Positions 8,703-21,003 of a stretch of DNA of 64,000 nt are shown piece by piece. The notes under the pieces are model-generated. The model saw only the letters and a list, made by a program, of their open reading frames with translations, was not told the DNA's origin and made no database searches. The translations under genes were made by a program, and so were the position numbers. Each line of letters begins with the position of its first letter. The first letter of the stretch is position 1. Source of the DNA: Arenicella chitinivorans (GTDB lineage Bacteria; Pseudomonadota; Gammaproteobacteria; Arenicellales; Arenicellaceae). The stretch lies in assembly GCF_014651515.1 (NCBI RefSeq), contig NZ_BMXA01000003.1, forward strand, positions 62,001 to 126,000. Reading direction: 5' to 3'.

Positions 8703-9140
8703 TTGTTAAATCGAAATTGCAAATCTCAGGTTAGAAAGCTGTCAATACTGGCGGTTTGCATTGGTCTGACGGGATGTGTGCCTTCGGATGAAGCGGAGGT
8801 TGCGATGGTGGCATTGATTGCGAATGCCAAGCAGTACCAACATCGACAGATTAAGACCTTCGGGTACTTAGCGATGAGCGACGAGCTTCGTTTGTTTTTG
8901 AATCGAGAGGATGCGCTAAACGGCAACTACTACCACTCGGTTTCGATTCAACAACTTACTGAGCGCGATCTGCAAAAAATCGATGCGTGTGTGAATCAAT
9001 ACGTTTCTGTCGCTGGCACATTTGATATGAAAAACAATCAACTCGTTTTCTCTCAAGCTGTGCGGTTTGAGGGCGGGGACAACAACATCTATTCACAACT
9101 CGTTTGTAATCACAACTTTAATATAAGAGGACAACAATGA
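8703..9140 (+). CDS. Putative lipoprotein, unknown function
   Basis: 145 residues from a TTG start preceded by AGAGGA at 8693-8698. The N-terminus has basic residues, a hydrophobic core and the lipobox LTGC (Cys25), so it should be a lipoprotein; the residue after Cys is Val, compatible with outer-membrane sorting. The body contains a fold-like segment (YQHRQIKTFGYLAMSDELRL, then QYVSVAGTFDMKNNQLVF) suggestive of a small beta barrel of OB type; this is a weak inference. Its stop codon overlaps the start of the next gene (ATGA at 9137-9140), implying translational coupling to a secreted Cys-rich peptide. Confidence 0.65.
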   Translation: MLNRNCKSQVRKLSILAVCIGLTGCVPSDEAEVAMVALIANAKQYQHRQIKTFGYLAMSDELRLFLNREDALNGNYYHSVSIQQLTERDLQKIDACVNQYVSVAGTFDMKNNQLVFSQAVRFEGGDNNIYSQLVCNHNFNIRGQQ

Positions 9141-9313
9141 AACTGACAAAACTTATTGCGACTTTGAGTGCGACTTTCATCCTTGGATTGGCAACTAGCC
9201 CGGCTTCTGCGTCGGCGTCATCGGGGGTAAATGCGGTGGATGAGCCAGGTGTTCTTTGTTATGTGTGCCCTCGGTGCTGTTCAAGAGACCCAAACATCGT
9301 GGGGCAAGAGTAA
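9137..9313 (+). CDS. 58-residue secreted Cys-rich peptide
   Basis: A short gene starting at ATG 9137, with AAGAGGA at 9125-9131 five bases upstream, and ending at TAA 9311-9313. The product has a clear Sec signal (MKLTKLIATLSATFILGLAT, then ASA sites near residue 26) and a mature part of about 32 residues. That part carries a tight cysteine cluster, CYVCPRCC, four Cys in eight residues, which could bind metal or form disulfides. Its start overlaps the stop of the lipoprotein gene, so the two are coupled. I recognise no family. A small bacteriocin-like, metal-binding or signalling peptide are all possible. Confidence 0.6.
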   Translation: MKLTKLIATLSATFILGLATSPASASASSGVNAVDEPGVLCYVCPRCCSRDPNIVGQE

Positions 9314-9482: not shown

Positions 9483-11582
9483 CTAGTGGCGCTTTTCGAG
9501 AATTTTAATTTCAGTTTCTTCGTTCAAAAATTTGGGGAACAGCACGCGTTTCTGGTCGGCAGAAATGGTGTAATCCAGTAACGGATTGAGTATCGGAAAC
9601 AAAGTCTGGCGGTCCCGCGTTGTGAGATCGACATAAGTCAAAGTATTGGTATCCTTGCCAATCGATAGGTAATAGAACCCATTACCTCGCGCATACAACG
9701 CATCGTAGGCGTAGATGTTGGTGTCGTTGACCAGTTTTTCGACGGATTTGTCGGCAAGGTTCATTTTCCAGATTCCATTCTGGTGGTATTTGTAAAACAA
9801 CATGTCGCCGTTGGCGGTTAGCTCAGGGGCGTAGCCGCCGCGTTCAGTGATTTTCACTGGTGGCTCGTCGGTACCGAGTTGTTTTTGATAAATCTGCCAG
9901 TCGCCGTCCAGGTCCGAGGAAAAGTAGATCGATTTGCCATCCAGAGCCCAGCTGGCGGTTTCAATGCGTGACGGTTTAGAACCCTGCCAAATAGTTTGAT
10001 AGGTCTTTTTAGCGACATCAAAGGTGTATACCTCGGTGTCGGTCGTGGCCAGTATGGCGCTATCATCGGGTGACCAGCGTAAACGCGGGATTAGTCGTCC
10101 ATCGGTGAATTTACTGAGTTGATACTCTCGTTGCTTACTGCGTATCCAGATCTGGGGTTGCCCGCTTCGCAGCGACATAAACGCGACATCATCGGATTGA
10201 TTAGCAAGTTCGGGATACAAATCAATTTCACTGGATTGAATAACCGGTTCGTCAGTATCGCTAGCATCGGTGGTTCGTCCCCATATATCGACGCCGGTTT
10301 CGCCAGTCATGATGGCCAGTTTGTCTTCCAGCGGGTGTGCGCTGATCGCGTGTAAGGTGTCTGTGTTACCTAGGACTTGTTTGTGAAATTTGTGTTTCAG
10401 GGAATACGCGTAAACATCGTCGTTAGTATCTATGTAGTACAGGAATTCCCCATCATGAGACCAGGCCAGGGCTTTTCGCCAACCGTTCAGGTTGAACAAC
10501 GTGGTGATTCTGGAGGTGTGTAGATCAAGCACATTGACCTCGGTATTGCCCCAATTCAGGTCACGCGAGAAGGCCAGGCGACGATTGTCATTGGATAAGG
10601 CAATATGAATATCGCCTTTTGACTTGCCGCTTTCAGGGTTGGTAAGTTGCTCACGCTTTGAAGTCTTGGTGGAATACTTATAAATTTTGTATGGGTCGAC
10701 CGCCGAGAGTGAATCGGTGTAATAAATATGTTCGTCTTGGCCCCAAACGACTTCGTTGGGTAGGCCGCTGGCGTGGCAGTCGACAACTGGCGATGCCGTG
10801 GTATTGGTATCGTGCGTCTTCATTTGCATTATCTGGCACTGGCCTTCATGGTGCCGTACAAACACCAGAGAGCTGCCGTCAGGTGACCAAGATGGCGAAG
10901 TATCGTCACCACTGCCTCGAGTTAGTTGTCTTGGAGATTCGCCATCCACCGACTGCACGTACAGTTTAAAAAATGGTTCGCCTTTCGCTCGATGGGCATA
11001 CGCAATAGAATGCCCATCGGGCGAGTAAGCTGCGTCTTTTTCCTGCCCAATTAGGACACTGAAGGGTTTAATGAGATTAAACGCCTGCATGGCCCGATAA
11101 CTGGCAGACTTGGTCAAATAATACGATCCAACCCAGAAAGCGGCTACGAGCAATGGAAGGGCGACCAATAACGATAAAAATTTTGTTGAGTTAGTCCGAG
11201 TAGGCGACAGTGGCGCTTGGTCAATACTCGTTTGCGTTGGTGCCGGTGAACCAGGATCTGGCGCCGCTTGCCATTGCACTGGTTGCACTAACTGGTAGCC
11301 TTTTTTTCGTATCGTCGTGATATAGGCATTATTTTGGTCTTCGCCAAGTATTTTGCGAATTTGATTTATGACGCGATAGATCGCATGGTCGCCGACGATA
11401 CGCCCCTTCCAAACATGCTGGATCAGTTCCTCCAGACTCACAACTTTGTTGGGATTCTCAGCGAAATGAACTAGAACAGCCATGGCCAACGGTTCCACGA
11501 AGAACTCTTGGTTCCCGAGAGAAAGCTTGTTCTGGTCCGGCGATATTTGCCAGGCGCCAAGGGTAAAGGGTCTACTCATCAA
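9483..11582 (-). CDS. CadC-like transmembrane regulator with TolB/WD40-type propeller
   Basis: 699 residues. Residues ~5-100 form an OmpR/CadC-type winged helix (LGNQEFFVEPLAMAVLVHF, SLEELIQHVWKGRIVGDHAI, TTIRKKGYQLV). A Pro/Ser/Thr linker leads to one transmembrane helix at ~135-155. The rest is a periplasmic beta-propeller with repeated TolB-type blades (DAAYSPDGHSIAYAH, DTSPSWSPDGSSLVFV, ALAWSHDGEFLYYI, ASWALDGKSIYFSSD). Such proteins sense an envelope signal and bind DNA while in the membrane. It is divergent from the precursor-peptide operon, and its gene is bracketed by two copies of a TCATTA direct repeat, so it is the obvious candidate regulator of both neighbours. Confidence 0.88.
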   Translation of the reverse strand: MMSRPFTLGAWQISPDQNKLSLGNQEFFVEPLAMAVLVHFAENPNKVVSLEELIQHVWKGRIVGDHAIYRVINQIRKILGEDQNNAYITTIRKKGYQLVQPVQWQAAPDPGSPAPTQTSIDQAPLSPTRTNSTKFLSLLVALPLLVAAFWVGSYYLTKSASYRAMQAFNLIKPFSVLIGQEKDAAYSPDGHSIAYAHRAKGEPFFKLYVQSVDGESPRQLTRGSGDDTSPSWSPDGSSLVFVRHHEGQCQIMQMKTHDTNTTASPVVDCHASGLPNEVVWGQDEHIYYTDSLSAVDPYKIYKYSTKTSKREQLTNPESGKSKGDIHIALSNDNRRLAFSRDLNWGNTEVNVLDLHTSRITTLFNLNGWRKALAWSHDGEFLYYIDTNDDVYAYSLKHKFHKQVLGNTDTLHAISAHPLEDKLAIMTGETGVDIWGRTTDASDTDEPVIQSSEIDLYPELANQSDDVAFMSLRSGQPQIWIRSKQREYQLSKFTDGRLIPRLRWSPDDSAILATTDTEVYTFDVAKKTYQTIWQGSKPSRIETASWALDGKSIYFSSDLDGDWQIYQKQLGTDEPPVKITERGGYAPELTANGDMLFYKYHQNGIWKMNLADKSVEKLVNDTNIYAYDALYARGNGFYYLSIGKDTNTLTYVDLTTRDRQTLFPILNPLLDYTISADQKRVLFPKFLNEETEIKILEKRH

Positions 11583-11786
11583 TTATGTTTGGGCAGCGTA
11601 GGGTCAATCGCAAACTGTACCATACACTTTGCAGCAGGGACTAGCCGTTCAATCGGCGAAGGCGCGATGAAAATACCCAGGTTGTTGCATGTATTTGCTT
11701 GTCTTGCTGGCGAATTTTTATCGGCCTGTGACCTTTGGGTAGTCTAATTATTTAGGCGTAACATGTTGTATTTATTGATAATTTGT

Positions 11787-11805
11787 TCATTACATCGTCA
11801 TTACA
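11787..11805 (+). promoter_or_regulatory. TCATTACA direct repeat upstream of the precursor peptide gene
   Basis: TCATTACA occurs at 11787-11794 and 11798-11805, an 11-bp period. It lies in the 388-bp gene-free divergent region (11583-11970) between the CadC-like regulator and the precursor peptide gene, about 165 bp before the peptide start. It matches the element at 8574-8592 in both core and spacing. A candidate binding site for the adjacent regulator; this is inferred, not shown. Confidence 0.5.
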
Positions 11806-11970
11806 GTGATGCCAAATCAAAAGCTTGCAAAATTAACAAACTATTAGCCACAAATTACGTACCCATCAAACTCTAACACAGCAAATCTCTAAACTGGTCT
11901 CGTCGGTCAGGCATACACAGGTATGTCACTGACATTTAAATTTAACTTAACAATCAAACAGAGGTTCAAA

Positions 11971-12135
11971 ATGAAAAAGTTAGACCAAGAGAAAAAAGTT
12001 GCAGAGTTGTCAATTGAAAACATGGACATCATCACCGAAGTTGACGATACAGCAGGCGCGGCGCTGGCGAACGACGACCAAAATGAGTGGTTTGAGTTTT
12101 GGACGCTGACTAGCGCGCACAACGTTAACAACTAA
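11971..12135 (+). CDS. Candidate RiPP/microcin-like precursor peptide
   Basis: 54 residues. The ATG at 11971 is chosen because GAGG at 11961-11964 sits 6 nt upstream; an in-frame ATG at 11923 has no ribosome site. The leader is charged and helical (KKLDQEKKVAELSIENMDII). A junction DDTAGA at residues 25-30 fits C39-peptidase cleavage after Gly29-Ala30, with Glu23 at -8 and Val24 at -7. The core would be 24 residues, acidic and aromatic (NEWFEFWTLTSAHNVNN at its end), with no Cys, so lanthionines or disulfides are excluded. It precedes genes for an HlyD adaptor, C39 exporter, kinase and hydroxylase. Likely modification targets are Thr45, Thr47, Ser48 (phosphorylation) and His50 or Asn/Asp residues (hydroxylation); these are inference. 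Confidence 0.78.
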   Translation: MKKLDQEKKVAELSIENMDIITEVDDTAGAALANDDQNEWFEFWTLTSAHNVNN

Positions 12136-12169
12136 GCGAGCGTTCTTTACGCTTACGCGCATTGTGATG

Positions 12170-12239
12170 TGGTGGAGCCTTATGCTGGGAAACCTACCCC
12201 GAGATCCTACGCTCTCAGCTTGAGGCTCCACCATCTTTT
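12170..12239 (+). terminator. Strong hairpin between precursor gene and export/modification genes
   Basis: TGGTGGAGCCT (12170-12180) pairs perfectly over 11 bp with AGGCTCCACCA (12223-12233). An inner GCTG/CAGC can extend the structure, and TCTTTT follows. It lies 34 bp after the peptide stop and ends 23 bp before the HlyD gene. This is the expected place for an attenuator that lets the peptide be made in excess over its enzymes; an mRNA-stabilising structure is the alternative. Confidence 0.8.
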
Positions 12240-12262
12240 CGTCCTTATACGAAGCGTGTCTT

Positions 12263-13501
12263 ATGTCTCGAATTAATTCCAAATACGTCGCTGATCGACT
12301 ACCAATTTTCGTTGGGATCAGCATCTTGCTGTCTCCGATCATCGTGATCGTGCTGCTAAATTTTGTCCCTGTAACGGAACAGATTGAACAGGTCGAAGGT
12401 GTGATCTCAAGTGACAGTGGCCCCCGCAGTCTGCGTGCGGAACGTCAGTTTCTGGTTCGTAAAAACCACGTGCGTGTCAATCAACACGTTCAGAAGGGTG
12501 ATCTGTTGGTGGAGTTCGATGACCAAGAAACACGGCGGACCTTGGAGATGCAACGGTTAACTATCGAGAAGTTGGAATTTCAGATCCAGACTCTGGAATC
12601 TCAGCAAGCTCTGATCAGTGAGAATGTGGCATTGTTGGAAGACATTCATGATCAAAAAGCTCAGAAGAAAGTGTTGCTGGCTGCGCAGCAGGGGTCGCAG
12701 AAAAAGTTGCTGGACCAACAAAAAGAATTGTCAGTCAAAGCGGTTACCACGGCTAAGAAGCTGAGTCAGTCCTTAGCAAATGTTGACAGCCGCAGTATTT
12801 CAGAACTGCGTCGTCTGGAGATACTGCGTTCCACCAACAGCACGATTGGTGAATTGCAAACCCTAGAACAAAAACTAAGCGAACAGCCAATTTTGCATGC
12901 CCTAAAAGATATCGAAGCATCAATCGAGCTGTCATCGATTCGAGAAAAGATTGTCTCTTCTAAGATCGAGCTGAATGAGATTGCGACTCAGCTCAATGAC
13001 GCGCAGCAAAAAATTAAAGAAGAACAGCTGGCATATCAAAACCTAATGACTGAGGTTGCGCGGTTTTCGATTCGAGCACCCATAACCGGCACAGTAGCGC
13101 ACTTGTCTGACAACTTGAATAAGTCCAACATGATCAATAAGGATGAAGTGATTTTGATTATCTCACCTGATGTTGAACCAACGCTGAAAGCGCAACTGGC
13201 ACTGACGGATGAGCAGTATAAGGATGCACGCGTCGCACAGAATGTGAATCTAGAAATCTGGGCTTGGAACCATTTTAAACACGGCGTGGTGACTGGCAAG
13301 GTGGTCGCTATTTCACCAGAAAAAGTGACTTCGGAATTGTTAAATAAGCCGAGCTATATCGCCGATGTCGAAATTCTACAGATGCCCAAGGACTACTACA
13401 CTTTGAAACGGGGTTTCAGCCTCAAGGCAAATATCGATATTGGAACCATCAGTCTGCTTGACTACATTCTGAAGAAATTCAACCTAGAAAAACCGGCATA
13501 A
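12263..13501 (+). CDS. HlyD-family periplasmic adaptor of the peptide exporter
   Basis: 412 residues. There is a short cytoplasmic N-terminus, one transmembrane helix at ~14-35, then a lipoyl half-motif (VRVNQHVQKGDLLVEFDDQE, ~70-90). A long coiled coil follows (~90-270, rich in Gln/Lys/Glu/Leu heptads), then the second lipoyl half (FSIRAPITGTVAHL), and a beta-barrel/membrane-proximal domain to the C-terminus. It bridges the inner-membrane ABC exporter to an outer-membrane TolC-type channel, which is not encoded here. The gene is the first after the attenuator and stops 3 bp before the exporter gene. Confidence 0.9.
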   Translation: MSRINSKYVADRLPIFVGISILLSPIIVIVLLNFVPVTEQIEQVEGVISSDSGPRSLRAERQFLVRKNHVRVNQHVQKGDLLVEFDDQETRRTLEMQRLTIEKLEFQIQTLESQQALISENVALLEDIHDQKAQKKVLLAAQQGSQKKLLDQQKELSVKAVTTAKKLSQSLANVDSRSISELRRLEILRSTNSTIGELQTLEQKLSEQPILHALKDIEASIELSSIREKIVSSKIELNEIATQLNDAQQKIKEEQLAYQNLMTEVARFSIRAPITGTVAHLSDNLNKSNMINKDEVILIISPDVEPTLKAQLALTDEQYKDARVAQNVNLEIWAWNHFKHGVVTGKVVAISPEKVTSELLNKPSYIADVEILQMPKDYYTLKRGFSLKANIDIGTISLLDYILKKFNLEKPA

Positions 13502-13504
13502 ACT

Positions 13505-15970
13505 ATGAACGCTTTCGTCGAAAAAATTGTGTGCAGTAATCTAGGTGACAAACAACGCAACACCAATGATTGCGCCGTTAGCGTCGTCAAGACACTGTAC
13601 AACCTGAAAAAGATAAATATTAATCGTAACCAGATTAAGGCATCGCTGACCCTGGATGAAGAGGGCGTTTCTTTCCAAAGTGTCAAAAGTCATCTGGTGG
13701 CCAATGGTTTTGATTGCGATTACATCGCATTAGGAACCCAGTCCAATCCGCTGGCGCAGCTAGCCGACCGAACACCATTGATTGCAATGGTGACTGCTGG
13801 TTTGCGCAAGCACTTTATCTTGATCAAATCGATCTATAAAAACCACGCCTTGGTGATGGACCCAGCAAACGGTGAGTTTCGAAACTGGTCGCTTGAGACG
13901 TTAGAAGCAAAGCTCACGCATTCGACATCTAAGGTCAATGAAGACATCTTAATTGCACATACGCGACAGTACATTCAGGAGCGATTGGATTCGTATGGAC
14001 TGACAGTCGACGTGTCACTCAAAGCCAATTGCATCGAGACCTACAACAAACTAGGCTATTTTGATTGGTTCGCTAAGCAGCATGGGTTTCACGACACGCA
14101 AGATGAAAAAGCATTTCTAGGTTCGCTGATCGAGGCCGACGAAAAGAAGGTCTTGCCATCGCATTTTCGGAAGCTGCGTTACATCAACGACGCCACGAAC
14201 ATCAAAACTCCGGTGTTACTCACGGTCGATCTTGAAAACTACATTCAACCCGATGGTGTGGTGGAAGACAAACAACACAGTTCGGTGATCGCACGTTTGT
14301 TCGGCATCATTTTGCGTTCCAAGAAATCTTCTTGGTTGCTCTCGAGCTTCATGATGGTCGGATTTTTGGCTGCCATGATGACGTACATAGCTGTCTACGC
14401 GAATCAGATTCTGATCGACGAGATTTTTCCTAAGCGGCATATCCTGACCCTGTATTCATTCGCTTTTGTGCTGTTTATTTTTCGTTTTGGCGAGTTCTTT
14501 TTGAACGTACTCAAAACCGCCAGCCAGATATTTATGGATCAGATACTGGACAAATACTTCTATCAAACCTTCAGTCGCCAGTTGTTGTTTTCCAACGAGG
14601 AGTACATTCGAACCTACAGCAAAGGGGACTTGGCGCAGCGCGTCAATGACATTCTAAAAGTTAAGCAATTAGTCTCTAAATTTATCAACGACGTGTTGTT
14701 GAGTTCCGTCATCGTGGTGTTCTCGATTGGCATGTTGTTTTTCTACAATGCCACGCTTGCATTGATCGTATTTGGTATCGGCGCGCTGTATCTGGTGGTG
14801 TTTCGTTACGCGTCTTCCGTGGTGCGCAATTTGGAATCGACCCTGTTCACCGAGAAAGGCAAGTTGTTAAACACTCTGCTCGACAAAGTAGAGGGACATT
14901 CCATTATCCGCCGTTGTCAAAGCGAAACCTTTTTTATGGACGAAGATGCGGTCATCACTGAGAGCTATCTTCGCGTGCAGCAGAAAGCCCGGTTTACTGG
15001 CTTTTTCCTGTCTTACTTTCCACGCTTTATTAGCGTGATTGGTTCCATCGCGATGGTGATGGTGGCTGGGCGCTTACTCATTAACGATAACGCCTTGTCG
15101 CTGGGCCAGGTGCTGGCGGTGATTGGGCTGGCTGAGATTACCTTCAGTGCCATGCGCACGCTCCTTAGTGCACAACTTATGCTGCAGGAAAGTATTGTGG
15201 TGGTGGAGCGATTCTTTGACTTTTGCGGTGCTGAACCGGTGTCCGCGCCCAAAGTTGGTCAACGTAAGTCGATAAGTCGAATCGATATCCGTGACCTGCA
15301 CTACCAGTTTCCGAATCAGAAATTTGCATTGAACATAGATCGGATAGCATTTCACCAAGGTGAAACAGTGTACGTGGATGGCGCCAATGGCTGTGGTAAA
15401 TCCACGATGCTTAGTTTAATTGGTGGCTCGTTACAACCGACGGAGCCGCACACCATTCAGTACGTCGATCCCGACGGCGGGTTCGTTAGTGAGCCAGATG
15501 CGCGAAAAAGTGTTTTGCTGACACGACCTGAAGACAAGATTTTCAATAACACCCTTAATTTTAATATCTATTTGGGACGAGACACGCGCAATTTCGACAT
15601 CTACTCACTGGCAAAGAAAATCGGCGCCGATGACTTTATTTGTCCGAGCCAGCTTCATGTCGATGCGTTGATCAGCGACGGTGGCAGTAATTTATCGGCT
15701 GGGCAGCGTCGTAAAATACTTTTGTTACGGGCCATCGTGAGTGACTGTAGCGTGCTTATTTTCGATGAGATTTTTCGCGGTGTGGATAAAGCGTCGAAGG
15801 AGAAAATCTGTCACTTCTTCAATGAATTTGATAATCGGACCTTGATCTTCACCTCGCATGAGCCGATTGATCAGCTGCGGGTGGATCGCGTGATTTCGAT
15901 GGCTGGTGGTCGTGTCATTGACGACACCGCGAGTCATGACCAAACCATTATTTGTGAGGAGGCGGTGTAG
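13505..15970 (+). CDS. ABC exporter with N-terminal C39 peptidase (PCAT)
   Basis: 821 residues. The N-terminal C39 domain keeps its catalytic residues: Gln17 (oxyanion), Cys23 in NTNDCAVSVV, His103 in LRKHFILI and Asp119 in VMDPANG. So it should both cleave the leader after a Gly-Ala type site and export the core. A ~110-residue linker follows, then a six-helix transmembrane domain (~260-560). The nucleotide-binding domain has Walker A GANGCGKST (~627-635), signature NLSAGQRRKILLL (~729) and Walker B VLIFDEIF (~750) with the catalytic Glu. It sits between the HlyD gene and the kinase gene, which starts 2 bp after its stop. Confidence 0.93.
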   Translation: MNAFVEKIVCSNLGDKQRNTNDCAVSVVKTLYNLKKININRNQIKASLTLDEEGVSFQSVKSHLVANGFDCDYIALGTQSNPLAQLADRTPLIAMVTAGLRKHFILIKSIYKNHALVMDPANGEFRNWSLETLEAKLTHSTSKVNEDILIAHTRQYIQERLDSYGLTVDVSLKANCIETYNKLGYFDWFAKQHGFHDTQDEKAFLGSLIEADEKKVLPSHFRKLRYINDATNIKTPVLLTVDLENYIQPDGVVEDKQHSSVIARLFGIILRSKKSSWLLSSFMMVGFLAAMMTYIAVYANQILIDEIFPKRHILTLYSFAFVLFIFRFGEFFLNVLKTASQIFMDQILDKYFYQTFSRQLLFSNEEYIRTYSKGDLAQRVNDILKVKQLVSKFINDVLLSSVIVVFSIGMLFFYNATLALIVFGIGALYLVVFRYASSVVRNLESTLFTEKGKLLNTLLDKVEGHSIIRRCQSETFFMDEDAVITESYLRVQQKARFTGFFLSYFPRFISVIGSIAMVMVAGRLLINDNALSLGQVLAVIGLAEITFSAMRTLLSAQLMLQESIVVVERFFDFCGAEPVSAPKVGQRKSISRIDIRDLHYQFPNQKFALNIDRIAFHQGETVYVDGANGCGKSTMLSLIGGSLQPTEPHTIQYVDPDGGFVSEPDARKSVLLTRPEDKIFNNTLNFNIYLGRDTRNFDIYSLAKKIGADDFICPSQLHVDALISDGGSNLSAGQRRKILLLRAIVSDCSVLIFDEIFRGVDKASKEKICHFFNEFDNRTLIFTSHEPIDQLRVDRVISMAGGRVIDDTASHDQTIICEEAV

Positions 15971-15972
15971 TT

Positions 15973-17124
15973 ATGCAGCTTTACCAACAACGAGAATCGA
16001 TTCATTTTGAGGTAGCGAATCCAACCAGCGATCAGGTGATTGCGACGGTCACGCGCGGTCCAAGCAAAGCGCGATTTGCAATTAATCGAGCAATCATGAC
16101 TTTTGTGCAGCAGTTCGAAACACCTTGTACCACCGATGAGGCGATCCGCCGCTATTGTAAGCAAGAAAGAATCCAGTTGACCGACGCACGGCAGCGAGAT
16201 CTTCGTGCGTTCGCGCGCCAGATTGCTGCCACACTGCTCCTAAATCCGATTCACACCAACGCCGAAACCGCGGAGCAGTCGATCGCACCGCTCGGATTCG
16301 AGCACCGACGTACGTTTAAAGACAAGCGTTTTGATGCTGTGTGCTTGGTCAACACGCCAGACGGCTTGCAAGTGATCAAGAATATAAAAGAACAAGTCGT
16401 TACGCAGTCGGCACGTCGTGACATTCTGCGTGATCTCGAGAATGAGTTTCGGGTGCTCACGCGTCTAGACGGTGTGTCTGGGGTTGTTGCTGCGCGGACT
16501 TTCTGTGCTACCTCGCCGGCCTATTTCGCAATGGACTATGTGTGCGGAGATCGGTTGGACAAATACGTGCGTTCGCAGCCATTATGTTTGCTGCAGCGTT
16601 TGGACATGGCGATGCAGCTATTGAGGTTGTTTGCAGAGATCCACGACGCCGGTGTATTGCACGGTGATGTTCATCTTGGCAACTTTATGTGTTCGCCAAC
16701 ACGGCAGATAACCGTTATCGATTTCGGCTGTGCCAGCATGCAGGATTCAGACTACCGTCCTAGCGGTGGTGCAACACCACATTTTGCGCCACCCGAGCGT
16801 GCTTCCGAGAGCTGGACCCGGGTGTGCCATTCACAACCAACGCGAGCAAGCGAGTGTTACCAGCTAGGTATTGTGATTGCCTATGTGATGACCGGCACAC
16901 TGCCGTTTCGGGGTAAAACCTATCGCGAATTGCACCGTGCCATTATGTCCGCTGAATATAGGCTGCCAACAACAACGCCGGATGGGCAGCCGATTCCGCC
17001 AGCGCTGCACAATCTGATTGGCGACATGTTGCAGCGAAACCCCGATGACCGACCATCCGACCTGATGCGTCTGGCTCACCAATTTCAATCTTATGCAAAC
17101 CAGGAGAGTGCCCATGTTATTTAG
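15973..17124 (+). CDS. Protein kinase-fold enzyme with N-terminal RRE/PqqD-like region
   Basis: 383 residues. The kinase core runs from ~108 to 375: Lys136 in LQVIKNIK, a helix-C Glu near 156-158, catalytic loop HGDVHLGN (230-237, Asp232 and Asn237), DFG at 250-252, and the activation-end APPERAS. All catalytic residues are present, so it should be active. Residues ~10-92 have the strand-strand-helix-helix pattern of PqqD-like RiPP recognition elements (FAINRAIMTFVQQF, CTTDEAIRRYC, LRAFARQIAATLLL). That call is from pattern only. There is no lyase or cyclase domain, so it is not a class III/IV lanthipeptide synthetase. Its last 11 bases overlap the hydroxylase gene. Confidence 0.82.
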   Translation: MQLYQQRESIHFEVANPTSDQVIATVTRGPSKARFAINRAIMTFVQQFETPCTTDEAIRRYCKQERIQLTDARQRDLRAFARQIAATLLLNPIHTNAETAEQSIAPLGFEHRRTFKDKRFDAVCLVNTPDGLQVIKNIKEQVVTQSARRDILRDLENEFRVLTRLDGVSGVVAARTFCATSPAYFAMDYVCGDRLDKYVRSQPLCLLQRLDMAMQLLRLFAEIHDAGVLHGDVHLGNFMCSPTRQITVIDFGCASMQDSDYRPSGGATPHFAPPERASESWTRVCHSQPTRASECYQLGIVIAYVMTGTLPFRGKTYRELHRAIMSAEYRLPTTTPDGQPIPPALHNLIGDMLQRNPDDRPSDLMRLAHQFQSYANQESAHVI

Positions 17125-18307
17125 TCAACTTGATGACTCGACACCGGACAATGGTGTTGTCAGTGATTTCACCCTAGAAAGTGTGCTGCGGCCGCTGACC
17201 GCACAGGACTTTTTTGATGATTATTGGGAGAAAAAGCCCTTTATCATTAAACGCAATAACCCAGATTACTATAAAGAGATTCTGAATCTAGAGACCTTGA
17301 ACGAAGTGTTTGCTTCTCGTATGTTTCGAGCGTCGGACATGCGTATTTTTAATAATGGTGAGAAGCGTGAATTCCAAGCATTTTCGAAGAAGAACAAAGC
17401 CAACGGCAACGTGGTGTTGAAAGAATTTGAAAATGGTTCGACAATTATTTTTGAAAACTTGGATCGCAATCATCTGCAGCTCGCCAAATTGATTCGAAAC
17501 CTTGAAAATGAACTGCATATTGATTTGCGTACCAATGTGTATCTCACGCCAGCGCAGGCAACCGGCTTCAAGGCACATTGGGATACACACTGTGTGCTGG
17601 TGATGCAGGTTCACGGCACCAAGCAATGGGAGATTTATGATAACCCGGTACCACTGCCCACAGAGAATCAAAAATACGACCCAGAGACCGGCGCGAAGGC
17701 GCAACACATTACCTCATTTCTAATGGAAGAAGGTGACATTGCTTATATTCCGCGCGGCTTCGTGCACAAAGCCAGTGCGCAGGACCAAGCTAGCTTGCAC
17801 GTGACTATGGGGCTGCGTCCCTTGGCGGTAAAAGACTTGTTGCGTGAGGTATTAAACAGTGTTTGCAAACAACATGTCGATCTTCGGCATGGTTTATTAC
17901 CCAAAGGCGAATTTGATGATGAAGCCTTGCGTGCCCAGTTGGTTGAGATCATGCAGCAGGCCGACTTATCTAAGTACCGCGAGCGGCTATACAAGAAATA
18001 TATTCTAGAACGGTATCCGATTCTGGACACGCAACTCAGCAGTTTGGTCAAAAATAATGTGATCGAGCAAGAAACTGATTGCCAAGTGAAACCCCACATG
18101 GTGTGGAAAGTGTTCGAAAACGAGTCGCAGTTGTCACTGTTGTTCGACGGTAAGTCAATGCATTTTCCGAAAGCCATGAAACCAAGCCTGACGTTCTTCG
18201 AACAATGTCGAAAGTTCTGCGTTGATCAAATTCCGGGTCTTGATCAAAAGAGTCGTCAAATATTAGCACAGCGTCTGGTGCATGAAGGCTTTCTAGAGGT
18301 GCATTAG
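17114..18307 (+). CDS. JmjC-domain Fe(II)/2-oxoglutarate hydroxylase, ribosomal-oxygenase type
   Basis: 397 residues from ATG 17114, chosen over an upstream in-frame ATG at 17093 because AGGAGAG at 17102-17108 is correctly spaced. The cupin/JmjC core carries the iron triad His155-x-Asp157 (FKAHWDTHCVLVM) and His218 (IPRGFVHKA). The basic residue in GTKQWEIY probably contacts 2-oxoglutarate. The C-terminal ~100 residues look like the winged-helix domain of the YcfD/MINA53/NO66 group, which hydroxylates Arg or His of ribosomal proteins. Here it lies inside a peptide export operon, so the precursor peptide is the more likely substrate. Overlap with the kinase gene implies coupled translation. 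Confidence 0.87.
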   Translation: MLFSQLDDSTPDNGVVSDFTLESVLRPLTAQDFFDDYWEKKPFIIKRNNPDYYKEILNLETLNEVFASRMFRASDMRIFNNGEKREFQAFSKKNKANGNVVLKEFENGSTIIFENLDRNHLQLAKLIRNLENELHIDLRTNVYLTPAQATGFKAHWDTHCVLVMQVHGTKQWEIYDNPVPLPTENQKYDPETGAKAQHITSFLMEEGDIAYIPRGFVHKASAQDQASLHVTMGLRPLAVKDLLREVLNSVCKQHVDLRHGLLPKGEFDDEALRAQLVEIMQQADLSKYRERLYKKYILERYPILDTQLSSLVKNNVIEQETDCQVKPHMVWKVFENESQLSLLFDGKSMHFPKAMKPSLTFFEQCRKFCVDQIPGLDQKSRQILAQRLVHEGFLEVH

Positions 18308-18310
18308 CGT

Positions 18311-19588
18311 ATGGTTCGGCGCTGGCGTCGTATAAGTATGTGGATCGGGTTGTCCCTCATTATCATCGCCCTGACGTGGTTTGTCCTTGCCATGTCACGG
18401 GCGGTGGTGGTGTTCACAGAAGGGGGTATTTATCAACGCATCATGATTCCGGTTGGGGCAAAGTTTCTAGCCTGGCGTGCAGACTTGGCAATCCATGCAG
18501 AGCAACCCGATTTGCGTATGCCACAAGGACCAATTGTGGCACCACGCGCGGATAATCGCTATGAAGTTTCTTGGGTGTGTGGTCAAGATGTACAGCGTGA
18601 ACTGGTGACAGCAACCGAAATTGACCTCCAATGTCGAGATCATCGGCGACATATTCATTGGATGACAACACAAGCAACACAGCGGCCCTTCAGCTCAGAC
18701 AACAACGTAGCCGTGATCAGCGATTTAGAGGGGAATTTGGCGTATTTTCTGGATTGGGGTAAACACGCTGGTGTATTAGATGATGCTGGGCGATGGGCCT
18801 TTGGAGATGGTCAGCTGGTGATTCTTGGTGACAGCGTGGATCGTGGTCGCCAGGTTTTCGATTTGCTGTGGAAATTGCATGCACTTGAATATGAAGCAAC
18901 CATCGCGGGTGGTGCGGTACATGTAATTTTAGGCAATCATGAACAGTACGTGTTGCAAGGCCGACTCTCGAGTGTGGAACCGGAACACCTTTGGGCCACT
19001 GAACAAATGATGCCGTATGCGGATGCCTGGTCTGCTCAAACGGTGCTTGGTCGGTGGTTGCGCAGTAAACCAATTATGCTGACGCTGGGCGACACGCTAT
19101 TCGTGCATGGTGGCATCAGTCCCAGTGCATTACAGCTGGGTTTGACGGTGGAACAGTGGAATCAGCGGCATCGCAGTGCCCTTATGCTCAACAATCATGA
19201 TCCTCAAGTATTCGGGCCAACGTCGCCGACGCAATACCGTGGTTACTTATATGCAACCGACGCCTATTCGCTGGCAACCCAATCGCACATTGAAGCAACG
19301 TTAACACAGTTCGGTGTCCAACGAATCGTGGTTGGCCATACGCAGACAGAGGCTCTAACACCGCGTTTTAATAATCGAGTCTTCGCAATCGAGCTGGGCG
19401 AACACGCTGGCGACTATTTAATGATCATGAATCATGAGCCGGTGGTGAAGCAGAGCGAACTACGCAAACAGCGATTTCGTGACCCCAATACACATCAGCG
19501 ACAATTTGAATTACTTAACCGCTCAGACTGGCGAGCATTTTTTGGTGTGTTTATTACGGCAGGTCGATCTGTTTTTGCGTCTATGTGA
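18311..19588 (+). CDS. Membrane-anchored PPP-type metallophosphatase, catalytic domain probably periplasmic
   Basis: 425 residues. A basic N-terminus (RRWRR) precedes a transmembrane helix at ~11-29, so the bulk should lie outside the cytoplasm. After a ~100-residue extra domain come the PPP motifs: SDLEGN (Asp138, Glu140), GDSVDRG (172-178), LGNHE (207-211), VHGG (265-268) and VVGHTQ (340-345). The first motif has Glu where the family normally has His (DxH), which may alter metal choice or activity. The start is 3 bp after the hydroxylase stop, so it is the last gene of the five-gene block. A peptide-phosphate substrate is an inference from context. Confidence 0.83.
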   Translation: MVRRWRRISMWIGLSLIIIALTWFVLAMSRAVVVFTEGGIYQRIMIPVGAKFLAWRADLAIHAEQPDLRMPQGPIVAPRADNRYEVSWVCGQDVQRELVTATEIDLQCRDHRRHIHWMTTQATQRPFSSDNNVAVISDLEGNLAYFLDWGKHAGVLDDAGRWAFGDGQLVILGDSVDRGRQVFDLLWKLHALEYEATIAGGAVHVILGNHEQYVLQGRLSSVEPEHLWATEQMMPYADAWSAQTVLGRWLRSKPIMLTLGDTLFVHGGISPSALQLGLTVEQWNQRHRSALMLNNHDPQVFGPTSPTQYRGYLYATDAYSLATQSHIEATLTQFGVQRIVVGHTQTEALTPRFNNRVFAIELGEHAGDYLMIMNHEPVVKQSELRKQRFRDPNTHQRQFELLNRSDWRAFFGVFITAGRSVFASM

Positions 19589-19703
19589 TGTATTGTGAAT
19601 ACGAATTTCACCACCAGACGGTATGTTAGTTCTGTCGCCGATTAGTAACATAATCGTGGTAATACTATTCTAGACAAAGATGTGATTTGATCAGGGGAAG
19701 GGT

Positions 19704-19923: not shown

Positions 19924-21003
19924 TCACCTTCGCAAGAACTCGCTACCGACCACTTGCTGTTCGAAACATACTAAGTGGTCCGCGTCGATTCGAATGCCGA
20001 TGATGTCATCGATTTCGTAGTCATCGTGACTCGGTACCAGGCACAATAATGTGTCGTTGCTACTGGTAAGCAGTGTGTACAGCGTTTGTGCGCCTTTGAA
20101 TGCCTTGCGGATTACCCGTGCTTGGATTGCACTTTGCGGGTCGTACTTGACATCATCAGGTCGCAGTAATAAGTCCACTTTTTTGCCTGCTAGTGATTGA
20201 TTAACACGCTCGCCGCGCAGCTCACCGAAGCCGGTAATGACTGTATGATCTTCAACCATTTCACCAGACACAAACACACCATCACCAATGAACTTGGCGA
20301 CAAAGCGGCTGTGTGGCGCATGATACAAGTCGAACGAAGTTCCCCATTGCATCAACGCGCCCTGCTGCATTACGCCGATTTGGTCGCCGAGCGCAAAGGC
20401 GTCATGTTGGTCGTGCGTCACCATAATGGCTGTAATGCCAAGGCGTTTTAACAGGGCACGTACTTCATACCCCAGATTCTCGCGTAGACTGGTGTCGAGG
20501 TTTGAGAAAGGTTCGTCCATCAGCAGCAGCTTAGGCCTTGGAGCAATAGCCCGCGCTAAAGCAACTCGTTGACTTTGGCCGCCTGAAAGCTGATGCGGGT
20601 AGACATCGTAATAATCTTGCATACCAACTAATGTCAGCATTTCCATGACGCGGTCACGGCGTTCCGTAGCCTTTAGCTTCGCCAACCCAAAGCCGACATT
20701 GTCGCCAATTTTTAGGTGCGGAAACAACGCATGGTCTTGGAACACCATGCCGACGTTGCGTTGTTCGGGTGGTACAACATGATCCGGTGTCGAAAGAACC
20801 TTACCATCGAGCCTAATGCGTCCGGCGTCGGGTGTTTGAAAGCCACTCAAGGCGCGCAGCACAGTGGTTTTACCGCAGCCGCTGGGTCCCAAGAGACAGG
20901 CCAGTTCGCCTTCCGACAAAGCGAAACTCACATTGTTGACGACAGAGGGTTGCGCATCGTAGCTGATACGTAACTGTTCGACGGTCAGAAACGAATTTGG
21001 CAT
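19924..21003 (-). CDS. ABC transporter ATPase, FbpC/PotA-like
   Basis: 359 residues. The nucleotide-binding domain has Walker A GPSGCGKTT (~39-47), Q-loop MVFQDHALFPHL, signature LSGGQSQRVALARA, Walker B LLLMDEPFSNLD and switch His in VTHDQHDAFAL. A C-terminal TOBE-like domain of ~120 residues follows, as in the ferric-iron/polyamine/thiosulfate importer group; the closest feel is FbpC. No permease or binding-protein gene is adjacent. Instead it follows argF by 2 bp and is the last gene of argD-argF-ATPase. The cognate permease must be elsewhere; the substrate is not defined. Confidence 0.85.
   Translation of the reverse strand: MPNSFLTVEQLRISYDAQPSVVNNVSFALSEGELACLLGPSGCGKTTVLRALSGFQTPDAGRIRLDGKVLSTPDHVVPPEQRNVGMVFQDHALFPHLKIGDNVGFGLAKLKATERRDRVMEMLTLVGMQDYYDVYPHQLSGGQSQRVALARAIAPRPKLLLMDEPFSNLDTSLRENLGYEVRALLKRLGITAIMVTHDQHDAFALGDQIGVMQQGALMQWGTSFDLYHAPHSRFVAKFIGDGVFVSGEMVEDHTVITGFGELRGERVNQSLAGKKVDLLLRPDDVKYDPQSAIQARVIRKAFKGAQTLYTLLTSSNDTLLCLVPSHDDYEIDDIIGIRIDADHLVCFEQQVVGSEFLRR

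What the first reader, a model, noticed from the sequence alone, without database searches (positions are those of the whole stretch)
11971..12135. Cysteine-free aromatic precursor core
Seen: Gly29-Ala30 junction, 24-residue core with two Trp, two Phe, Thr/Ser cluster and a His/Asn-rich tail, no Cys. Known C39 peptidases accept Gly-Gly, Gly-Ala and Gly-Ser. Without Cys, neither lanthionine nor disulfide chemistry is possible, so any maturation must use other side chains, consistent with the kinase and hydroxylase next door.
Basis: partly seen in the sequence, partly recalled or inferred. Interest (0 to 1): 0.8.

Follow-up and report, generated by a model that had tools for sequence, protein, structure and literature searches.

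The report
Cysteine-free exported peptide with tailoring operon
A bacterium carries an 8-kb, six-gene cassette that appears to make a small cysteine-free peptide, decorate it with a kinase and an oxygenase instead of the usual sulfur chemistry, and cut and export it, which would make it an unusual, apparently undescribed kind of bacterial peptide product; no product has yet been shown.

Summary
A 54-aa ORF at 11971-12135 (+) has a Shine-Dalgarno site, a strong coding signal (higher than all 190 spurious ORFs), a Gly29-Ala30 junction and a Cys-free 24-aa core. It heads a tight operon: HlyD adaptor, ABC exporter with an intact C39 peptidase, Hanks-type kinase, JmjC_2 oxygenase (NO66/MINA53 histidyl-hydroxylase fold) and a membrane-anchored PPP-type phosphatase. 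The closest genus mate has the same flanking genes joined by 83 bp where this genome has 7,963 bp, so the six genes occur or are absent as one unit. The genome has no HopA1-type lyase or LanC. Relatives of the JmjC enzyme sit in lasso, LanM/Nif11, NHLP and radical-SAM peptide clusters, and JmjC enzymes of this kind are proven precursor-peptide hydroxylases (BipG). Most likely (inferred): a RiPP precursor phosphorylated on its Thr/Ser cluster and hydroxylated in its His/Asn tail, cut after Gly-Ala and exported, with the phosphatase perhaps unmasking it in the periplasm. No homologous operon was found, so leader conservation could not be tested. New variant of a known kind.

The parts
11630..19592 (.). 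7,963-bp unit holding promoter region and all six genes; replaced by 83 bp in the closest genus mate (G006, locus L063)
   Evidence: blastn of window against L063: 9111-11629 and 19593-24000 align to 8439-5940 and 5856-1467; no flanking repeats
11960..11964 (+). Shine-Dalgarno AGAGG of the precursor ORF
   Evidence: sequence
11971..12135 (+). precursor peptide ORF, 54 aa, Cys-free
11971..12060 (+). proposed leader, residues 1-30, ending Gly29-Ala30
   Evidence: pattern test; cleavage itself inferred
12061..12132 (+). proposed core ALANDDQNEWFEFWTLTSAHNVNN
   Evidence: sequence; inferred from the Gly-Ala site
12169..12234 (+). long hairpin between precursor and hlyD, possible attenuator or 3' end protector
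   Evidence: 127-nt gap folds at -52.9 kcal/mol against -32.5 +/- 3.7 for shuffles, z -5.5; not a canonical terminator
12263..13501 (+). HlyD-family periplasmic adaptor, 412 aa
   Evidence: PF13437 2e-7, TIGR01843 1e-20, the latter below its curated cut-off
13505..15970 (+). peptidase-containing ABC exporter, 821 aa; C39 Cys23, His103, Asp119 present; Walker A and LSAGQ present
   Evidence: PF03412 9e-12, PF00664 1e-17, PF00005 5e-15; motif positions
15973..17124 (+). Hanks-type kinase, 383 aa; Lys136, HGD Asp232, DFG Asp250, APPE present; N-terminal about 95 aa of unknown family
   Evidence: PF00069 1e-24; best NCBIfam model is the kinase part of LanL, 9e-28, below its cut-off for the whole synthetase
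17093..18307 (+). JmjC_2 Fe(II)/2OG oxygenase, 404 aa, triad His162/Asp164/His225; overlaps the kinase gene by 32 bp
   Evidence: PF08007 6e-26; triad invariant in 12 aligned sequences; MINA53 6e-26; NO66 Z 29 over 373 residues
18311..19588 (+). PPP-type metallophosphatase, 425 aa, N-terminal membrane anchor, motif I D-x-E
   Evidence: PF00149 1e-11; Shewanella protein-tyrosine phosphatase 2z72 1e-43; hydropathy and paralogue

Best explanation
The ORF is the precursor of a ribosomally made, post-translationally modified peptide (RiPP). Shown: a real coding ORF, first gene of a six-gene unit that is present or absent as a whole. Inferred: in the cytoplasm the Hanks-type kinase phosphorylates hydroxyl side chains of the core (Thr45, Thr47, Ser48), with no lyase to turn them into dehydroamino acids, and the NO66/MINA53-like JmjC oxygenase hydroxylates a tail residue (the single His50, or an Asn, being the best candidates). 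The C39 domain of the ABC exporter cuts after Gly29-Ala30 and the transporter with HlyD (and presumably a housekeeping TolC) exports the core. The membrane-anchored phosphatase faces the periplasm and can remove the phosphate after export, so that phosphorylation may keep the peptide inert inside its maker. The hairpin after the precursor gene probably lets it be made in excess over the enzymes.
For: Coding signal and Shine-Dalgarno; intact C39, HlyD, kinase, JmjC and phosphatase in gaps of 2-3 bp or overlapping; one presence/absence unit of exactly these genes; hairpin z -5.5; Gly-Ala used by a known C39 exporter; kinase closest to LanL/LanKC kinases, which phosphorylate precursor Ser/Thr (PMC10604976; PMC9486802); JmjC relatives in lasso clusters where a kinase gene directly precedes the JmjC gene (L027, L028), between a Nif11 peptide and LanM (L082), near an NHLP peptide (L019), near a radical SAM gene (L009); BipG is a proven precursor-peptide JmjC hydroxylase (PMC12707348); bacterial PF08007 proteins noted in RiPP-like contexts (PMC12710340); phosphatase N-terminal RRWRR followed by a hydrophobic segment, and a Cys pair shared with the Shewanella enzyme.
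Against: No homologous operon, so no leader conservation or core variability. Leader matches the double-glycine consensus only in part. Leader-binding (RRE) domains in the kinase N-terminus and JmjC C-terminus are not significant by profile comparison, and the kinase model is unreliable (pLDDT 34). Several JmjC relatives lie outside recognisable RiPP clusters (L020, L021, L076-L081). Phosphatase motif I carries Glu for the usual metal-binding His, though its genome paralogue does too.
Confidence: 0.65

Rival explanations
1. Unmodified class II microcin-like peptide: the ORF is a C39-processed, exported peptide, while kinase, JmjC and phosphatase act on something else (regulation, immunity, a second substrate).
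For: C39-ABC plus HlyD is the standard export pair of such peptides (general knowledge); Hanks-type kinases and PPP phosphatases are often signalling proteins; some JmjC_2 relatives lie outside RiPP clusters.
Against: All six genes form one operon-like unit that is present or absent together; the kinase is nearest to lanthipeptide-synthetase kinases and has no recognised sensor domain; JmjC relatives recur beside RiPP precursors.
Confidence: 0.2
2. An atypical lanthipeptide-like pathway: kinase phosphorylation is followed by elimination by an unrecognised activity, giving dehydroamino acids without thioether rings.
For: Kinase similarity to LanL and LanKC; Thr/Ser cluster in the core.
Against: No lyase in the operon; no HopA1-type lyase or LanC in the genome; no Cys. 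A lyase of another family was not searched for.
Confidence: 0.1
3. The small ORF is not a precursor; the C39 exporter handles a substrate encoded elsewhere.
For: Partial match to the leader consensus; no family hit.
Against: Coding score above all spurious ORFs, good Shine-Dalgarno, first gene of the unit; no other candidate small ORF of 40 aa or more outside the large genes of the unit; no second copy or similar peptide in the genome.
Confidence: 0.05

Closest known systems
Class III/IV/V lanthipeptide kinases (LanKC, LanL, LanK/CaoK)
   Same: Kinase phosphorylating Ser/Thr of a precursor; best NCBIfam match of this kinase is the kinase part of LanL.
   Different: No lyase, no cyclase, no Cys in the core; the kinase is a separate protein with its own N-terminal region.
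BipG/PbsQ JmjC hydroxylases of biphenomycin biosynthesis
   Same: JmjC-type Fe/2OG hydroxylase acting on a precursor peptide.
   Different: BipG acts on ornithine in a pathway with MNIO, arginase and B12 radical SAM, none of which is here; this core has no Arg and no Lys. Direct sequence comparison with BipG was not made.
Lasso peptide clusters with a C-terminal-Ser kinase (paeninodin type) and the Acaryochloris lasso clusters L027/L028
   Same: Kinase gene directly followed by a JmjC gene beside a RiPP core machinery (L027/L028); kinase without lyase decorating a peptide (PMC8498205).
   Different: HPr-type rather than Hanks-type kinase; B2 protease and Asn-synthetase-like cyclase absent here.
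Double-glycine (C39) exported peptides: class II microcins, mersacidin (MrsT, Gly-Ala)
   Same: C39-ABC exporter, HlyD adaptor in the Gram-negative case, Gly-Ala junction.
   Different: Kinase, JmjC and phosphatase in one operon; partial leader consensus.
Ribosomal oxygenases NO66, MINA53, YcfD/RoxA
   Same: Same full-length fold including the C-terminal domain.
   Different: Encoded in a peptide-export operon; presumed substrate is a small peptide.
Shewanella PPP protein-tyrosine phosphatase (2z72, 1v73)
   Same: Motifs GDxxDRG, GNHE, HGGI, VGHT and a Cys pair.
   Different: N-terminal membrane anchor, and D-x-E in place of D-x-H.

Membership tests
C39-exported double-glycine peptide | Adjacent exporter with C39 domain carrying Cys, His, Asp | tested here: met
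   PF03412 9e-12; Cys23, His103, Asp119
C39-exported double-glycine peptide | HlyD-family adaptor in a Gram-negative host | tested here: met
   PF13437 32 bits against cut-off 22.2
C39-exported double-glycine peptide | GG/GA/GS site with hydrophobic -4, -7, -12 and acidic -8 | tested here: inconclusive
   GA, Glu-8 and Val-7 fit; Thr-4 weak; Asp-12 does not fit
C39-exported double-glycine peptide | Cleavage after the site | not testable with these tools
   needs protein
Lanthipeptide | Cys in the core | tested here: not met
   no Cys in 54 aa
Lanthipeptide | HopA1-type lyase or LanC-like cyclase available | tested here: not met
   none in the operon; PF17914 and PF05147 not found in the genome
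Lasso peptide | B2 transglutaminase-like protease and Asn-synthetase-like cyclase | tested here: not met
   none among the operon proteins
JmjC_2 (PF08007) Fe/2OG oxygenase | Family score above cut-off and HxD...H triad | tested here: met
   91 bits against cut-off 22; triad invariant; fold match
RRE-dependent RiPP | PqqD-like leader-binding domain | tested here: inconclusive
   no Pfam hit; profile comparison not significant; low-confidence strand-strand-helix-helix-helix order in kinase 10-89; strands then helices in the C-terminal part of the JmjC model
PPP phosphatase | Motifs GDxHG, GDxxDRG, GNHE, HGG, GHT | tested here: inconclusive
   all but the first; motif I is SDLEG, and SDVES in the genome paralogue
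RiPP | Modified peptide product observed | not testable with these tools
   needs mass spectrometry

The most novel reading that the evidence does not exclude
A new RiPP class in which a stand-alone Hanks-type kinase and a histidyl-hydroxylase-like JmjC enzyme modify a Cys-free core, the phosphorylated peptide is exported as a harmless pro-form, and a membrane-anchored periplasmic phosphatase releases the active peptide: phosphorylation used as reversible self-protection of a ribosomal peptide.
Probability: 0.25. Interest if true: 0.8.

Novelty: new variant of a known kind. Interest (0 to 1): 0.6.

Why it matters
Kinases in RiPP pathways are known mainly as the first half of dehydration, or as decorators of lasso tails. 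An operon with a kinase and a phosphatase but no lyase would make reversible phosphorylation of a ribosomal peptide directly testable in one 8-kb unit, and would add a candidate bacterial peptide substrate for the NO66/MINA53-type hydroxylase fold.

Tried and rejected
Searches for sister operons: exporter in 100 relatives at 1e-40 (a strict cut-off with only 9 candidates scored per genome); its C39 part in 369 genomes of the class at 1e-6; kinase in class and order samples; JmjC by single-protein scan of genome contigs (nothing), by a three-sequence profile (six loci) and in class and phylum samples. None gave a sister operon. These are samples or pattern scans, so rarity is likely but absence is not proven. 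The kinase hit L005 is a generic Ser/Thr kinase beside unrelated genes. Plasmid hits for HlyD and C39 (L017, L018) are other systems. Anti-phage defence was considered: PADLOC hits are to generic kinase and ATPase domains. A dedicated regulator was considered: the divergent OmpR-type gene is also present next to the empty site, so it is not part of the unit. RRE domains in kinase and JmjC were suspected from sequence, but the profile comparison was no better than shuffles.

Full report
What is there. The ORF at 11971-12135 reads MKKLDQEKKVAELSIENMDIITEVDDTAGAALANDDQNEWFEFWTLTSAHNVNN. All stated features hold. It has an AGAGG ribosome site 6 nt upstream. Its codon score is 0.40 bits per codon; 190 spurious ORFs of the window average -0.10 and none reaches it. 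No Pfam, NCBIfam or informative PHROGs family matches it, and the genome holds no second copy.

The operon. Downstream on the same strand lie hlyD (12263-13501), a C39-ABC exporter (13505-15970), a Hanks-type kinase (15973-17124), a JmjC_2 oxygenase (17093-18307) and a PPP-type metallophosphatase (18311-19588); from hlyD on, gaps are 2-3 bp, with a 32-bp overlap between kinase and JmjC. The 127 nt between precursor and hlyD fold into a long hairpin, -52.9 kcal/mol, z -5.5. It was not scored as a canonical terminator. Such a structure after a precursor gene commonly raises precursor dosage over the enzymes (general knowledge); that role is inferred here.

One unit. In the closest genus mate G006 the divergent regulator (9483-11582, -) and the ABC-ATPase gene (19924-21003, -) occur next to each other (84% and 93% protein identity). 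Aligning its contig L063 with the window gives matches up to 11629 and from 19593, with 83 bp there against 7,963 bp here. The boundaries fall about 340 bp before the precursor and 4 bp after the phosphatase stop codon, so the six genes form one presence/absence unit. No flanking repeats were seen. Gain here is more likely than loss there, because in 17 genus mates the exporter was not found at 1e-40 nor the kinase at 1e-30. Base composition is not clearly foreign.

Enzymes. The C39 domain keeps Cys23, His103 and Asp119, unlike the degenerate domain of HlyB-type exporters (general knowledge); the nucleotide-binding domain keeps Walker A and LSAGQ. The kinase keeps Lys136, Asp232, the DFG Asp250 and APPE, and its best NCBIfam model is the kinase region of LanL (9e-28). 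The JmjC protein keeps its metal triad in all 12 aligned sequences, is nearest to MINA53 and NO66 by sequence and matches NO66 over nearly its whole length (Z 29.3, rmsd 6.3, 373 residues; model pLDDT 77). These are histidyl hydroxylases, and the core has a single His. That is a lead on the target residue, not a proof: the RiPP enzyme BipG hydroxylates ornithine (PMC12707348). The phosphatase matches the Shewanella protein-tyrosine phosphatase (1e-43), with a hydrophobic N-terminal segment preceded by RRWRR, which by the positive-inside rule puts the enzyme in the periplasm. Its motif I is D-x-E rather than D-x-H; the genome paralogue has the same change and an N-terminal hydrophobic segment, so this looks like a subfamily trait rather than decay.

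Context of the JmjC family. Relatives at 24-33% identity recur in RiPP clusters: Acaryochloris lasso clusters with PqqD, B2, an HPrK-like kinase directly before JmjC, and a lasso cyclase (L028: NF033535 5e-255; L027); Nif11-type peptide, JmjC, LanM (L082); NHLP peptide (L019); LanM, Nif11 and NHLP export genes (L007); radical SAM (L009). Others lie in surroundings without RiPP genes (L020, L021, L076-L081). The literature agrees that bacterial PF08007 proteins occur in RiPP-like contexts (PMC12710340).

Mechanism. Shown by sequence: a coding, Cys-free precursor-like ORF in a unit with active-site-intact exporter-peptidase, kinase and oxygenase. Inferred: phosphorylation of the Thr/Ser cluster, hydroxylation of the tail, cleavage after Gly-Ala with export, and removal of phosphate outside. 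The pro-form idea is by analogy with streptomycin, which its producer keeps as the 6-phosphate and dephosphorylates on export (own knowledge, not tested). Lanthionine formation is excluded for this peptide by the lack of Cys, and the genome has no HopA1-type lyase or LanC.

Limits. Leader recognition domains remain a guess. No product is known.

Noticed in passing
window 9137-9313 (+): 58-aa ORF with a signal-peptide-like start and a Cys-rich end (LCYVCPRCC), downstream of the regulator; a similar small ORF lies beside the regulator in G006 (L063) and G005 (L065, LCLICKPCC).
   Followed up: partly
window 9483-11582 (-): OmpR-type DNA-binding domain and PD40/TolB-like propeller in one protein, divergent from the precursor; kept in relatives that lack the operon.
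   Followed up: partly
L027 and L028 (Acaryochloris): Lasso peptide clusters that combine an HPrK-like kinase with a JmjC oxygenase (L027 also has a second 2OG oxygenase); no paper on this pairing was found in the library searched.
   Followed up: partly
L082:3309-8013: Nif11-type precursor, JmjC oxygenase and LanM in a row, suggesting a hydroxylated class II lanthipeptide.
   Followed up: partly
L076-L079: JmjC relatives in one family of the phylum stand near small proteins with twin-arginine-like signals (L079 scored by TIGR01409), possibly their substrates.
   Followed up: no
L039:8693-9898 (G000 contig C1): Membrane-anchored phosphatase paralogue in the same genome sharing the unusual D-x-E motif I.
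   Followed up: partly
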